From: Candidatus Obscuribacterales bacterium
GTDB taxonomy: Bacteria > Cyanobacteriota > Vampirovibrionia > Obscuribacterales > Obscuribacteraceae
Assembly: GCA_020050685.1 (NCBI GenBank)
Contig: JAGVKG010000010.1
Span: 1 to 64,000 of the forward strand
Direction of reading: 5' to 3'
Length of the DNA stretch: 64,000 bases
Position 1 is the stretch's first letter. The number at the start of each line of letters is the position of its first letter. Positions 7,032-55,605 of the stretch are shown piece by piece. A program made the position numbers and the translations under genes. The notes below the pieces were generated by a model. It was not told the DNA's origin. It did no database searches and worked only from the letters and a program-made list of their open reading frames with translations.

Positions 7032-7763
7032 TTAGATATAACGACGCATTTTCACAAGATCAGAGAACGTGTCCCAGATGACGGAGAACTTGCCGCCCGA
7101 TGCACCTTGTGAAAGGCGAGGCAAATGCTCGATTGGAATTTCTACAACCCGGAAACCAGCCTTGTCAGCGCGAATGCAAAGTTCGGCATCCACAAACGGT
7201 GTTGTGGACCGGAGCTTAATTGTTTCCATGATTGCGCGACGGAACAACTTAATCGAGTTTACATCGGTGTACTTGCTGCCGTAAATCGTGCGCAACATAA
7301 AGTTGTAGACATGCGATTGCAAGCGGCGCTTCGGTGGGTCATTGCGCTTAACGCGGCGACCAATGATCAAATCCGCAATTTGCAATCCCTTGGCCATTGG
7401 AATCAACTCTTTCGGTGCGTATTGATAGTCACCCGGCAAAGAGAAAATCAAATCTTTGCTGCCAATTTCATAAAGTTCTTTGATCGTGAAACCAAAGCCT
7501 TTGTTTTGTGGATGATCAACGACTTTCAATTTTGGCAAAGTCGACTTCAGGTCCGTCAACACTTTTAACGTGTTGTCTTTACTGCCATCGTTGACGCAAA
7601 TGATTTCGTAGTCATTACAAACATTCTTGAGCAGAGTGTCTACATCGGTGACCAGCCGGCCAATGGTTGTTTCGTCATTGTAGGCTGGAATAATCACAGA
7701 TATGGATGTGATTGTTTGCAGTTGCGATTTGGTCGCTTGATTTAACTCAATTGTCGTGTTCAT
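7032..7763 (-). CDS. Family 2 glycosyltransferase (DPM1-like)
   Basis: Cytoplasmic GT-A fold enzyme of 243 residues that would move a sugar from a nucleotide donor to a lipid or glycan. The N-terminal ISVIIPAYNDETTIGRLV and IICVNDGSKDNT are the donor-binding strands. In place of the usual DADLQ metal motif it has PGDYQ, keeping only the second acidic residue. No membrane segments, so it lacks the membrane tail of longer polyprenol-phosphate transferases. Its ATG overlaps the stop codon of the upstream aminotransferase by one base, which implies translational coupling. Substrate cannot be told. Confidence 0.85.
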   Translation of the reverse strand: MNTTIELNQATKSQLQTITSISVIIPAYNDETTIGRLVTDVDTLLKNVCNDYEIICVNDGSKDNTLKVLTDLKSTLPKLKVVDHPQNKGFGFTIKELYEIGSKDLIFSLPGDYQYAPKELIPMAKGLQIADLIIGRRVKRNDPPKRRLQSHVYNFMLRTIYGSKYTDVNSIKLFRRAIMETIKLRSTTPFVDAELCIRADKAGFRVVEIPIEHLPRLSQGASGGKFSVIWDTFSDLVKMRRYI

Positions 7764-8929
7764 TATCGTGCAACACCTGTAACAGGGGAATTTGTCTCAG
7801 TCACCGAATTAGCCGAAGTATTAGCTGTCTTAAAATACTGACGGATACCGTCAATGATTTCGTCAACTTGGGAATCTGTAAGTTCTGGTTGCATTGGCAA
7901 GCTCAGAATGCGCTTGGCTGCATATTCCGTATTGGGCAAATTGCCTGGCTTATAGCCCAGATGTGCATAAGCATTTTGCAAATGTGCCGGCACCGGATAG
8001 TGAATGATTGTTTGAATGCCCTTTTCTTCTAAAAGGAAGTTCTGCAATTCATCGCGATTGTCCGTTTGAATAACGTAAAGGTGATAAACATGATGACGGT
8101 TCTCAGATTCTTGCGGCACCACGACAACATCTTTCAGCCCTTCTGAATAACGCTTGGCGATTTGGCGGCGGCGCTCGTTCCACTCATGCAGGTAAGGTAT
8201 CTGGCAAGCCAATATTGCTGCCTGAATTTCATCCAAGCGGCTGTTGATGCCAATGCTTTCATGATAGTAGCGCTTGGACGAACCATAATTTCTTAGCTTG
8301 ATCAGCTTGTCGTAATTTTCTTTGGTCTTGCAAGTGACAGCACCGCCATCACCAAAGGCACCCAAATTCTTGCTGGGGTAAAAGCTGAAAGCACCGAACT
8401 CAGTCAATGTACCGGACTTACGTCCACCATAGGCAGCACCGGTTGATTGAGCGCAATCTTCCATCACAACAATGCCATGCTTTGCCGCTAATTTCATTAG
8501 CGGTTCCATGTCTACCATCTGTCCATATAAATGTACAGGAACTATTGCCTTGGTTTTCGGTGTGATGCGAGCTTCAATAGCAGCAACATCCATTACATAA
8601 GTTTTGGGATCGATGTCGACAAAAATTGGCGTGGCACCGGTCATTGAAATTCCGGAAATTGTCGGCACTGCCGTATGAGCAACGACAATCACTTCGTCTT
8701 GCGGACCTACACCCGCGGCTGCCAGGGCCAAGTAAATTGCTTCAGTTCCGGAGGCGCAGCCAACCACATATTCTGCACCCAACCAATTGGCGAATTCTTT
8801 TTCAAAGCGTTCAAGTTCAGGGCCAAGAATGTAGTAGCCACTTGCTAGGACTCGCTGAACCGCAGTATCAAAATCGCTCTTGTAAGCTTGATAGTGCAAT
8901 TTCAAATCGCCAAAGGGAATATTTATCAT
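7763..8929 (-). CDS. DegT/DnrJ/EryC1/StrS sugar aminotransferase
   Basis: PLP enzyme of 388 residues that transaminates keto-sugar nucleotides. Family features are FGDLKLHYQ at the N-terminus, GCASGTEAIYLAL, VMEDCAQSTGAAY, and FYPSKNLGAFGDGG with the PLP lysine at residue 187. GINSRLDEIQAAIL and the C-terminal PVPAHLQNAYAHLGY are also typical. First gene of a two-gene operon with the glycosyltransferase, and divergent from an SDR epimerase, so the three probably make and attach an amino sugar. GGAG of its ribosome-binding site lies at the 3' edge of a repeated leader element. Confidence 0.93.
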   Translation of the reverse strand: MINIPFGDLKLHYQAYKSDFDTAVQRVLASGYYILGPELERFEKEFANWLGAEYVVGCASGTEAIYLALAAAGVGPQDEVIVVAHTAVPTISGISMTGATPIFVDIDPKTYVMDVAAIEARITPKTKAIVPVHLYGQMVDMEPLMKLAAKHGIVVMEDCAQSTGAAYGGRKSGTLTEFGAFSFYPSKNLGAFGDGGAVTCKTKENYDKLIKLRNYGSSKRYYHESIGINSRLDEIQAAILACQIPYLHEWNERRRQIAKRYSEGLKDVVVVPQESENRHHVYHLYVIQTDNRDELQNFLLEEKGIQTIIHYPVPAHLQNAYAHLGYKPGNLPNTEYAAKRILSLPMQPELTDSQVDEIIDGIRQYFKTANTSANSVTETNSPVTGVAR

Positions 8930-9231
8930 ATAATCGCTCCGTCGCCTTGCGGCTCCTCCGCTCTACTGACGCTCACTTCAAACTGCTCCTCGCAGTTTTT
9001 CGCTCGCTTACCTGGGCACTCGTCTACGTGCTCCGTCGCCGCTTATGTGGCACTCGGCTATTATCGCCTCGTTGCCAGACTTTTACACTAGTCAATAGTA
9101 ATTGAAAGTCTCAAGATATGAATTAAGGGGACTTTAATTGCATGGGAATTAGCCCCTTGAGATGTTAAGATCTTCCCTAAGGTTGTGGCCTTCTCTGGTC
9201 ACAGAATTCATAATAAGTGGAAGTTAATACC
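8930..9231. other. Divergent intergenic region with a repeated leader
   Basis: Holds the repeated element described separately and, near the SDR gene, inverted-repeat pieces (TCTCAAG near 9108 with CTTGAGA near 9156, and GTGGCC/GGTCAC near 9185-9202). I recognise no known riboswitch. Confidence 0.4.
8935..9035 (-). repeat. Repeated structured leader element, copy A
   Basis: Read on the minus strand, about 95 bases align with 54690-54800: CGAGTGCCCAG-TAAGCGAGC, then a hairpin, then GAGCG...AGAGCGGA.GAGCC..AAGGCGAC. The hairpin here is AAACTGC-GAGGA-GCAGTTT. In copy B it is AGATTGC-GAGGA-GCAATCT, so two positions changed on both arms and kept pairing. The element ends directly before the DegT start codon and supplies its GGAG. 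Confidence 0.6.
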
Positions 9232-48418: not shown

Positions 48419-48461
48419 CGCAACGAAGCGCAGCACTGCGGAGAGCAGTGCGGAGTGTCTT
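48419..48461 (+). repeat. Hairpin element resembling the repeated leader, copy C
   Basis: GCACTGC-GGAGA-GCAGTGC with purine-rich flanks (AACGAAGCG before, GGAGTGTC after) resembles the centre of copies A and B, with a five-base purine loop. It lies between two minus-strand genes and is read on the strand opposite to them, so homology is doubtful. Confidence 0.3.
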
Positions 48462-48469
48462 GACGCTTA

Positions 48470-49516
48470 TTACGGATTGAAGGCGAAAAGAAACGTTGTC
48501 AGGAAATTGAATCCGGCGTGGCCAATTATTGTCGTAGTTGTATTGGTGTAACGTTTCACAATGCCCATTATTGTAGACCATAGTGCAACTTGAACAATAA
48601 AGACTGGGGCGTGGCTAAACTGTCCATGCAAGAGTCCGTGCAATGCAGCTGCAGGAAAAATTCCGAAGACCGGCTGAAGAGCGCCTCGAATCAGGGTTTC
48701 CTCACCAATACCCGCACACAAGGCAACAAACAGTGAAAGAATCAACGACGACTCTAAGCCACCACCGGCGGTGAATGTCCCGGCATTGTAGTTTGAGAGT
48801 TTCTGGGCCAATCCACCTTCCATTTGATGTGTAAAGTTAGACCACAGCCAGTCATAACCGAACGTAAAAAATATTAGTCCCACACCAATAGCCACTTGCT
48901 TCCAACTTGGCTTAACCCAAGCCAGACGGGCCATCGTTTGAACTGGTGTGCGCGTGATAATAATGCCGCAACCACAAGCTGCCAAAACCACAAGCCCAAG
49001 CCCATTGTATGAAAGTAATTGCTCCAGTGGCACCGGAATCGGAATTGGCAAAGCCGGCAGTTTGATGGAATTAGGATCAACCGTACCGAGCAAAAAGCCA
49101 ATTGCAGTTACATAAATGAATAGAGCAACCAAATGCGGATTCGATTCGGCGACAAAAATTCGCTGTGCCAGAAACGACTTGACCACATCGCCCTTTTTAA
49201 TCAAAGTGACAAAAACTTGACCGGAAACAATTTGGTCAATGATTGAGAAGCAGAAGGACAACCCCTTTCGCACAGGCATGAAAAGCGTTAGCAAAGTGGC
49301 GAAAGCCAGTCCGGCAATTACATAAAATCCCCAGATACTGGCATTATTTTCCATACTCCAGCCAAAAGCGGTCATAGTTTCGCCAAAAAATGCGATACCA
49401 ATGATTACCCTGAGGATCCATTCAAGCCAATGTTGATGGCGAGAGCCATGAGCCAGCAGAGCCAGGATGCAGCAGATGATGATAATGAAAAAGTCGAGAG
49501 TCAATGAAAGCCTCAC
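48470..49516 (-). CDS. CPBP-family intramembrane metalloprotease
   Basis: 348 residues with about eight membrane segments. The C-terminal CAAX/CPBP motifs are GIGEETLIRGALQP (Glu-Glu...Arg), HGLLHGQFSH and IIGHAGFNFL (His ligands). Bacterial members process or protect peptides or act in signalling; the target here is unknown. Single gene. The ATG precedes a hydrophobic N-terminus (LDFFIIIICCILALLA). Confidence 0.85.
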   Translation of the reverse strand: MRLSLTLDFFIIIICCILALLAHGSRHQHWLEWILRVIIGIAFFGETMTAFGWSMENNASIWGFYVIAGLAFATLLTLFMPVRKGLSFCFSIIDQIVSGQVFVTLIKKGDVVKSFLAQRIFVAESNPHLVALFIYVTAIGFLLGTVDPNSIKLPALPIPIPVPLEQLLSYNGLGLVVLAACGCGIIITRTPVQTMARLAWVKPSWKQVAIGVGLIFFTFGYDWLWSNFTHQMEGGLAQKLSNYNAGTFTAGGGLESSLILSLFVALCAGIGEETLIRGALQPVFGIFPAAALHGLLHGQFSHAPVFIVQVALWSTIMGIVKRYTNTTTTIIGHAGFNFLTTFLFAFNP

Positions 49517-54492: not shown

Positions 54493-54813
54493 GACGACAA
54501 TTAAAACAGCCGGAAGGCTCTTCCAGCAAGCCTTTTGGCTTACAAGAGATTAAAAAACATGTTGTAATTCCCACTCAATGGGCGAATCTCCATAGACACG
54601 ACCATCTTTACAGCCTACAATACCTTCGTTTTAGATGTCACGAGACCCCAAATCCGCGACGCTCAAACAAGTGCCAGTCAGCCAACACTCAAAACGAGTG
54701 CCCAGCTAAGCGAGCAAAAGATTGCGAGGAGCAATCTGCAGCGAGCGCCACAAGAGCGGACGAGCCACGAGGCGACCCAGTGAGTCGCCGAGCAGAGGGA
54801 GCGTTTACAACCA
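54493..54813. other. Intergenic stretch with the repeated leader
   Basis: No gene seen. The right third is copy B of the repeated leader. The left two thirds (54493-54689) show no recognised RNA or promoter. Confidence 0.5.
54690..54800 (+). repeat. Repeated structured leader element, copy B
   Basis: Aligns over about 85 bases with the minus strand of 8935-9035 (for example CGAGTGCCCAG, TAAGCGAGC, GCGAGGAGC, AGAGCGGA). Its hairpin AGATTGC-GAGGA-GCAATCT keeps pairing despite two changes relative to copy A. It ends with GCAGAGGGAGCG, which supplies the only purine-rich site before the start of the histidine-rich gene, in the same direction as that gene. Confidence 0.6.
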
Positions 54814-55605
54814 ATGTCCGACCACCATCACGAGAACTACGATTGCATCGTCAATGATCATTCGCCGGCCTTTCACCAGCATCATCATCACGGTGAAAAC
54901 AACGCCGAGAGTATAGACCTTGCAACCGTGCTTGGTATACCGCACGATTCCGGGCACTCTATTGTCGGCCACATCCTGGGCACTGATGCTTGCGGTCAGC
55001 AGCAACACTTTGATGGGCACCAGCATTTTGACGTTCACCACTCGCTTGATCACGTCGGTGATACCAATCCTGCTCACGTCAACACAATGGACACATTGGT
55101 TGGTCTAAATTGGGCCATGGTTCTCGGCGGTCTGAAGTTCTCGCGCAATATTTTGTTCTTCGGCATCTTTTGTTTGATGTTCCTCTGGCTTGGTGCGCTT
55201 CACTGGATTCGACAGCACGAACCACAAGTAAACGAAACATTGGGTATGGGCACGGGTGCTGCACCAGCCCAAGTGATACCAAGCAATCTGGATCAAGCGC
55301 TCTTGAATGGCACACGCAATGCCATGCCGGTACCAACACCAATGCTTGCAGCACGACAAGCAACATTAGGCACCAACACCACCAATCCACAATGCTATGT
55401 TCAAATACCAATGACTGGAGTCGCCAACGATACTAAACCAATTTCGGTGACACCGGTTTATCGAGAAATACGCCAACCAGCCAGAGAAACGTTTGCTCAA
55501 GTCCGGTCAACTCAGGCTACATATTATGGACAGCAAAATTCGTCATTGCTAGCCGTGCGGGGCGACAAAGGTGCCATACGCCTGAAGACAATTGTGAACA
55601 GATAA
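54814..55605 (+). CDS. Histidine-rich single-pass membrane protein
   Basis: 263 residues. The first about 92 residues hold 19 histidines (including HHH and HQHHHH) mixed with Asp and Glu, then one membrane segment (about 111-130, FFGIFCLMFLWLGALHWI), then a Thr/Asn/Pro/Gln-rich tail ending in a basic stretch. A metal-binding N-terminal domain is a fair inference. Orientation, and so which side meets the metal, is not clear. No known family. Confidence 0.65.
   Translation: MSDHHHENYDCIVNDHSPAFHQHHHHGENNAESIDLATVLGIPHDSGHSIVGHILGTDACGQQQHFDGHQHFDVHHSLDHVGDTNPAHVNTMDTLVGLNWAMVLGGLKFSRNILFFGIFCLMFLWLGALHWIRQHEPQVNETLGMGTGAAPAQVIPSNLDQALLNGTRNAMPVPTPMLAARQATLGTNTTNPQCYVQIPMTGVANDTKPISVTPVYREIRQPARETFAQVRSTQATYYGQQNSSLLAVRGDKGAIRLKTIVNR

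What the first reader, a model, noticed from the sequence alone, without database searches (positions are those of the whole stretch)
8935..9035. Covarying leader element, copy A, before the DegT start
About 85-95 bases on the minus strand match 54690-54800 and both copies end at a start codon in the sense direction. The central hairpin differs at two positions on both arms yet stays fully paired, with the same GAGGA loop. GAGGA in the loop could be an anti-Shine-Dalgarno decoy or a protein site. Two copies before unrelated genes suggest a cis-regulatory RNA or a mobile repeat that brings a ribosome-binding site.
Basis: partly seen in the sequence, partly recalled or inferred. Interest (0 to 1): 0.62.

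Follow-up and report, generated by a model that had tools for sequence, protein, structure and literature searches.

The report
Dispersed RNA-like leader repeat, Obscuribacteraceae
The finding is one of about 105 copies of a short, mobile, two-hairpin repeat scattered between genes in an uncultured Obscuribacterales bacterium; here and at some other genes it has become the gene's RNA leader and appears to supply the ribosome-binding site.

Summary
Copies A (8929-9023, minus) and B (54694-54813, plus) match, and the central stem differs at two positions on both arms while staying paired. They are not a private pair. A covariance model finds about 105 copies in this 4.2 Mb genome and diverged copies in 18 of 35 other sampled genomes of the same family, with one marginal match in 24 more distant genomes. 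The element is two hairpins built around G/A-rich internal loops. Covariation is strong here and again in relatives not used to build the model. G-U outnumbers A-C at paired positions about 5 to 1, pointing to the GA-rich strand as the folded form.

The family is mobile. The copies before mnmG and degT are absent from 29 and 19 orthologous loci; the element lies between a retained promoter-like region and the start codon. Its 3' end carries GGAG 7-12 nt before about 17 start codons, and abuts antisense stop codons about as often. Orientation is strongly sense-biased in relatives but not in this genome, so it is not purely a leader element.

Best reading: a new family of structured interspersed repeats (BOX/bcr-like), some copies domesticated as leaders with a ribosome-binding site. 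A regulatory ligand is unproven.

The parts
8929..9023 (-). Copy A, complete element (subfamily T1: 5' ACGAGTGCCC, hairpin 1, hairpin 2, GCGATTATA)
   Evidence: CM hit 8930-9011, 88.1 bits, E 1e-19; blastn; boundaries by comparison of copies
8971..9007 (-). Copy A hairpin 1: GC-[GA/GA]-GC-[3x3 internal loop]-7 bp stem with GAGGA loop (8987-8991)
   Evidence: fold; covariation
8936..8961 (-). Copy A hairpin 2: GC-[GGA/GGA]-G:C-[GA/GA]-GCC, GCAA loop
   Evidence: fold; covariation
8937..8940 (-). GGAG, putative Shine-Dalgarno inside hairpin 2, spacer 7 nt to the ATG
9024..9057 (-). Remnant of a second, partial copy directly upstream of copy A (CCGAGTGCC...GGCGACGGAGCACGTAG)
   Evidence: sequence
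7763..8929 (-). DegT/DnrJ/EryC1-type aminotransferase, gene downstream of copy A
   Evidence: PF01041, E 4.7e-118
54694..54813 (+). Copy B, complete element plus the short AT-rich spacer to the start codon
   Evidence: CM hit 54706-54787, 67.0 bits
54710..54746 (+). Copy B hairpin 1 (GATTGC-GAGGA-GCAATC)
54756..54802 (+). Copy B hairpin 2, with an extra nested hairpin GGCGAC..GTCGCC (54771-54789) at its tip; GGGAG at 54797-54801. Assigned by comparison with other copies; the minimum-energy fold differs
   Evidence: other copies carrying the same nested hairpin
54814..55605 (+). 263-aa ORF without Pfam match, gene downstream of copy B
48420..48470 (+). Third, truncated copy in the window: hairpin 1 and the 3' tail, hairpin 2 deleted; abuts the stop of an antisense ORF (48470-49516, minus)
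   Evidence: CM hit 32.9 bits, E 3e-6

Best explanation
This is a family of short (about 95 nt) interspersed, structured repeats that has multiplied in genomes of one bacterial family, Obscuribacteraceae by inference. Each copy folds as two hairpins held together by G.A-rich internal loops on one strand. The 3' end carries GGAG followed by about 6-10 A/T-rich bases. When a copy lands in sense orientation between a gene's promoter and its coding region it becomes the 5' leader: it is transcribed, it supplants the native leader, and its GGAG serves as the ribosome-binding site, with the ATG or GTG directly behind hairpin 2. Copies A and B are such leaders. Other copies lie between convergent or codirectional genes or beside tRNAs and have no leader role. 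Shown by computation: copy number, structure, covariation, gain of copies before mnmG and degT, 3'-end abutment, GGAG spacing. Inferred: transcription, translation from this GGAG, mobility by an unidentified machinery supplied in trans, and that hairpin 2, which partly holds the GGAG, tunes translation.
For: 113 CM matches in this genome at E<=1, about 105 of them below 0.01; matches in 18 of 35 other family genomes. Covariation: 94.1% of cells paired against 20-44% for slid controls, 250 double-changed cells against 58 in shuffles; in relatives not used to build the model 92.1% against 20-43%, and 290 against 85. G-U 57 versus A-C 11, and 79 versus 16 in relatives. No element at 29 mnmG loci or 19 degT loci of relatives, with promoter-like sequence retained. 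Of about 20 sampled element places per genome in two genomes of one genus, only one (before a glmS-like gene) is shared with the same neighbours, and its sequence differs. 3' end within 6 nt of a sense start in 15 copies against 5.8 expected, and of an antisense stop in 17 against 7.7; the 5' end shows no such excess. GGAG-to-start spacers of 7-12 nt in 17 copies before ORFs of 100 aa or more. Contig breaks inside copies.
Against: Orientation is not biased in this genome (20 sense, 17 antisense codirectional). No transposase or terminal inverted repeats were identified; no Y1 transposase; no clear target-site duplication. No transcription data. The GGA of the Shine-Dalgarno sits in an internal loop, mostly unpaired in copy A (p about 0.73) but less so in B, so its accessibility is uncertain. 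ORF starts are mechanical calls.
Confidence: 0.72

Rival explanations
1. A true cis-regulatory RNA (riboswitch or protein-bound leader) that switches translation by opening and closing hairpin 2 over the ribosome-binding site, spread so that many genes form one regulon.
For: Strong covariation and G-U over A-C asymmetry; GGAG inside hairpin 2 with the start directly behind; strong sense bias in relatives, 37 to 8 codirectional; subfamily T1, to which A and B belong, mostly precedes sense genes, 12 of 16.
Against: Downstream genes look unrelated (tRNA synthetase, tRNA modification, sugar metabolism, tRNA genes); many antisense or convergent copies in this genome; the copies are absent upstream of the same genes in relatives; no Rfam family matched; no csrA.
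Confidence: 0.15
2. A purely parasitic or structural DNA element (REP-like) whose fold matters only as single-stranded DNA during its movement; leader positions are tolerated by-products.
For: Both orientations here and convergent placement, tandem arrays with near-identical units in relatives, insertion sequences landing in copies.
Against: 3' end and not 5' end abuts gene boundaries; sense bias in relatives; no Y1/RAYT transposase found. G-T is also more stable than A-C in DNA, so the asymmetry does not exclude this.
Confidence: 0.1
3. The elements act mainly as 3'-end elements (terminators or mRNA stabilisers) between genes, including convergent pairs.
For: 17 copies abut antisense stop codons, and many copies lie between convergent genes.
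Against: No U-run after the hairpins; many copies directly precede start codons or tRNA genes, where a terminator would be harmful.
Confidence: 0.03

Closest known systems
BOX elements of Streptococcus pneumoniae (PMC3049150)
   Same: Interspersed intergenic repeat with extensive conserved RNA-type secondary structure, thought to affect genes it is co-transcribed with; over-represented between convergent genes
   Different: BOX is modular (boxA/boxB/boxC); no sequence relation was tested beyond the absence of any Rfam match; here the two-hairpin GA-loop plan is fixed and the 3' end supplies GGAG next to the start codon
bcr repeats of the Bacillus cereus group, notably bcr10 and bcr18 (PMC3446304)
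   Same: Interspersed repeats; bcr10 and bcr18 have conserved secondary structure and are transcribed in 5' UTRs; bcr1-3 are MITE-like
   Different: Different phylum; no direct sequence comparison made; the present family combines high copy number, strong covariation and a GGAG at the start-proximal end
REP elements (PMC3733652)
   Same: High-copy extragenic hairpin repeats; insertion sequences can target them (PMC1525189)
   Different: REPs are 20-40 bp palindromes tagged GTAG or CGTC and the GTAG kind is linked to RAYT (Y1) transposases; this element is about 95 nt with two hairpins, and no Y1 transposase was found in the genome
MITEs, e.g. Nezha of cyanobacteria (described in PMC3049150)
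   Same: Short, non-autonomous, dispersed, structured
   Different: No terminal inverted repeats and no clear target-site duplication found here

Membership tests
Structured small interspersed repeats (BOX/bcr-like kind) | Many dispersed, mostly intergenic copies in one genome | tested here: met
   about 105 copies; mostly between called ORFs
Structured small interspersed repeats (BOX/bcr-like kind) | Conserved secondary structure across copies | tested here: met
Structured small interspersed repeats (BOX/bcr-like kind) | Mobility: copies absent from orthologous sites | tested here: met
   mnmG and degT loci; positions mostly not shared within a genus
REP / RAYT-mobilised repeats | 20-40 bp palindrome with GTAG or CGTC tag | tested here: not met
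   element is about 95 nt with two imperfect hairpins; no such tag noted in the copies listed, by inspection
REP / RAYT-mobilised repeats | Y1 (RAYT/IS200-type) transposase in the genome | tested here: not met
   PF01797: no match in the 98.7% complete genome
MITE | Terminal inverted repeats | tested here: not met
   ends ACGAGTGCCC / GGAGCGATTAT are not inverted repeats of each other (inspection)
MITE | Target-site duplication | tested here: inconclusive
   flank sharing only slightly above shuffled pairs
CsrA-regulated leader (GGA in hairpin loop) | CsrA encoded in the genome | tested here: not met
   PF02599: no match
Known Rfam RNA family / riboswitch | Score above a family's gathering threshold | tested here: not met
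Cis-regulatory leader | Consistent sense placement upstream of genes | tested here: inconclusive
   37:8 in three relatives, 20:17 in this genome
Cis-regulatory leader | Expression responds to a signal through the RNA | not testable with these tools
   needs experiments

The most novel reading that the evidence does not exclude
A mobile RNA regulator: a transposing leader that overwrites native 5' UTRs and brings its own hairpin-gated ribosome-binding site, so that movement enlists housekeeping genes (mnmG, a trpS-like gene, an asparagine synthase, degT) into a common post-transcriptional control read by an unknown protein that recognises tandem G.A internal loops.
Probability: 0.15. Interest if true: 0.8.

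Novelty: new member of a known kind. Interest (0 to 1): 0.5.

Why it matters
It gives a clear case, in a little-studied lineage next to the photosynthetic cyanobacteria, of a short structured repeat that becomes the working leader of housekeeping genes, with the ancestral promoter-like sequence still visible. The high copy number with compensatory change makes it a natural mutational scan of one RNA fold built on G.A internal loops, and it offers a direct way to ask how repeats acquire regulatory roles.

Tried and rejected
Rfam: no family at gathering threshold, and at relaxed threshold only tRNAs and an antisense-tRNA chance hit. CsrA as reader of the GGA loops: no csrA. IS200/RAYT mobilisation: no Y1 transposase. 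Terminal inverted repeats or target-site duplication: none clear. Spread by phage or plasmid: no match in phage and plasmid records; the one viral-contig pattern match (L319) has no CM match and is taken as chance. Pattern matches in Hymenobacter and Chloroflexi records also have no CM match. Anti-Shine-Dalgarno decoy in the hairpin-1 loop: loop too variable. trpS orthologs as a further empty-site test: strong matches in only three relatives, too few.

Full report
CHECK OF THE OBSERVATION. The minus strand at 8935-9035 and the plus strand at 54690-54800 carry the same element. With A as query, B is found at E 1.8e-18 in the own-genome search. The central stem is AAACTGC-GAGGA-GCAGTTT in A and AGATTGC-GAGGA-GCAATCT in B: two changes on each arm, all compensated. 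A is followed at once by the ATG of a DegT-type aminotransferase (PF01041); B by the ATG of a 263-aa ORF without Pfam match.

IT IS A LARGE FAMILY. The same search found 44 matches in the genome. I aligned 24 copies, gave them a hand-derived structure and built covariance model R1. R1 finds 113 places in the 4.2 Mb genome at E<=1, about 105 of them below 0.01, including a third, truncated copy in this window at 48420-48470. In 59 other genomes it matches 18 of 35 of the same family and only one, marginally (E 0.007), among 24 more distant genomes of the order or class; stricter filters were used there, so zero counts may hide diverged copies. A pattern scan of named genomes gives matches confirmed by the model in records labelled Candidatus Melainabacteria, Candidatus Obscuribacterales and one uncultured bacterium.

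STRUCTURE. Hairpin 1 is GC-[GA/GA or GAA/GAA]-GC-[3x3 loop, mostly GNA/GNA]-7 bp stem with a 5-nt loop. Hairpin 2 is GC-[GGA/GGA]-G:C-[GA/GA]-GCC with a short, variable tip. Most internal loops begin with G and end with A on both strands of the helix, as expected for sheared G.A pairs (structural inference from general knowledge). On 80 distinct copies of this genome 94.1% of cells pair, against 20-44% when the partner is slid by 1-3 columns; 250 cells show changes on both sides against 58 in shuffles. On 90 distinct copies from three relatives that were not used to build the model the values are 92.1%, 20-43%, 290 and 85. Both alignments were fitted to the model, which favours the structure. 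G-U outnumbers A-C at paired positions 57 to 11 and 79 to 16, which suggests that the GA-rich strand is the folded form, more naturally as RNA. Copies A and B fold better than shuffles (z -2.8 and -2.0); in B the minimum-energy fold departs from the family's hairpin 2. The hairpin-1 loop is GAGGA in 53 of 80 copies here, not invariant.

MOBILITY. R1 finds no element at 29 mnmG loci of relatives (76-82% amino-acid identity), while the own locus has one. Many of the relatives keep a TTTGCTATTATC-like promoter region 5' of mnmG that is also present here, and in this genome the element occupies the stretch between it and the start codon. For degT, 19 orthologous loci also lack the element; a similar upstream stretch (TTTC..TACTATTGAC) is readable in at least one relative. 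Two genomes of one genus (G002, G024) share only one sampled element position with the same neighbours, before a glmS-like gene, and there one has a single copy and the other a tandem array with different sequence. Only element-bearing loci were fetched for that comparison and G024 is 71% complete, so the figure is rough. Arrays with near-identical units of about 108-111 nt occur in relatives.

WHERE COPIES LIE. In this genome codirectional neighbours are 20 sense and 17 antisense, with 21 divergent and 20 convergent; in three relatives the codirectional count is 37 sense to 8 antisense. Subfamily T1, with 5' CGAGTGCCC as in A and B, precedes a sense ORF in 12 of 16 cases (subfamilies were assigned by a simple motif). 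The 3' end lies within 6 nt of a sense start in 15 copies (5.8 expected for uniform placement in the spacer) and of an antisense stop in 17 (7.7 expected), whereas the 5' end shows no excess. In 17 copies GGAG lies 7-12 nt before the start of an ORF of 100 aa or more, including mnmG, a trpS-like gene and an asparagine synthase recognised from their N-termini; a few of these starts are doubtful. One copy lies between two tRNA genes (coordinates). ORF calls are mechanical (longest ORF, no trained gene finder), so individual distances can be wrong.

MECHANISM. Most likely this is a non-autonomous mobile repeat with a conserved fold. In sense orientation downstream of a promoter it serves as leader and supplies the ribosome-binding site, as at degT and mnmG. 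The GGA of the Shine-Dalgarno sits in the 3x3 internal loop of hairpin 2 and is predicted to be mostly unpaired in copy A (p about 0.73) but less so in B, so a modest effect of hairpin 2 on translation is plausible but unproven. How it moves is unknown: no Y1 transposase, no terminal inverted repeats, no clear target duplication. CsrA is excluded as reader as far as the assembly shows.

COMPARISON WITH KNOWN KINDS. BOX, RUP and SPRITE of pneumococcus are interspersed repeats with extensive structure likely to affect co-transcribed genes and over-represented between convergent genes (PMC3049150). bcr10 and bcr18 of Bacillus cereus have conserved structure and are transcribed in 5' UTRs (PMC3446304). 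REPs are shorter, tagged, and in the GTAG kind tied to RAYT transposases (PMC3733652). The present family works like the first two; no sequence relationship to any was established, and no Rfam model matches. A literature search for Obscuribacter together with 'repeat' and 'intergenic' returned no paper in the held library, which does not prove that none exists. I rate it a new member of a known kind.

Noticed in passing
own-genome contig ends: L109, L058, L123, L125, L120, L090, L052, L135 (C12, C15, C59, C50, C62, C55, C35, C47): Eight copies of the repeat are cut at GGAG by the same foreign sequence, ATGGTATGTAAAGCGCCCTC..., which runs into the contig end: a multi-copy insertion that lands at one position in the repeat.
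   Followed up: partly
L129 (C6), L134 (C54), L136 (C64), L137 (C7), L139 (C30); right ends in L142 (C63), L143 (C31), L128 (C46): A second insertion begins ATGGTATGTATGCGC after hairpin 1; C6 shows about 208 nt of non-coding sequence with an 11-bp inverted pair, then AGGAGG and an ATG. A non-coding left end before an ORF recalls IS110-type elements with a bridge RNA, but no protein was available to test this; not found in 39 relatives.
   Followed up: partly
copy B 54771-54789; also C26:75634, C53:98144, C16:102574, C20:91439, C39:69911, C62:5452: A near-identical nested hairpin GGCGACCCAGTGAGTCGCC recurs at the tip of hairpin 2 in several copies, as if a smaller repeat had inserted into the repeat.
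   Followed up: no
C39:49192 and C39:69911 copies (L108, L130): The hairpin-1 loop is replaced by a similar CCAAATTCATTTTGGATCC / CCAGATTCATTTTGGATT insert in two copies.
   Followed up: no
L105 2567-2845 (C67): A copy of the repeat lies between two tandem tRNA genes, ending 4 nt before the downstream tRNA.
   Followed up: no
family genomes, trpS: The trpS-like gene of this genome has strong matches in only 3 of 39 other family genomes at E<=1e-60, suggesting replacement or a different TrpRS type in the rest.
   Followed up: no
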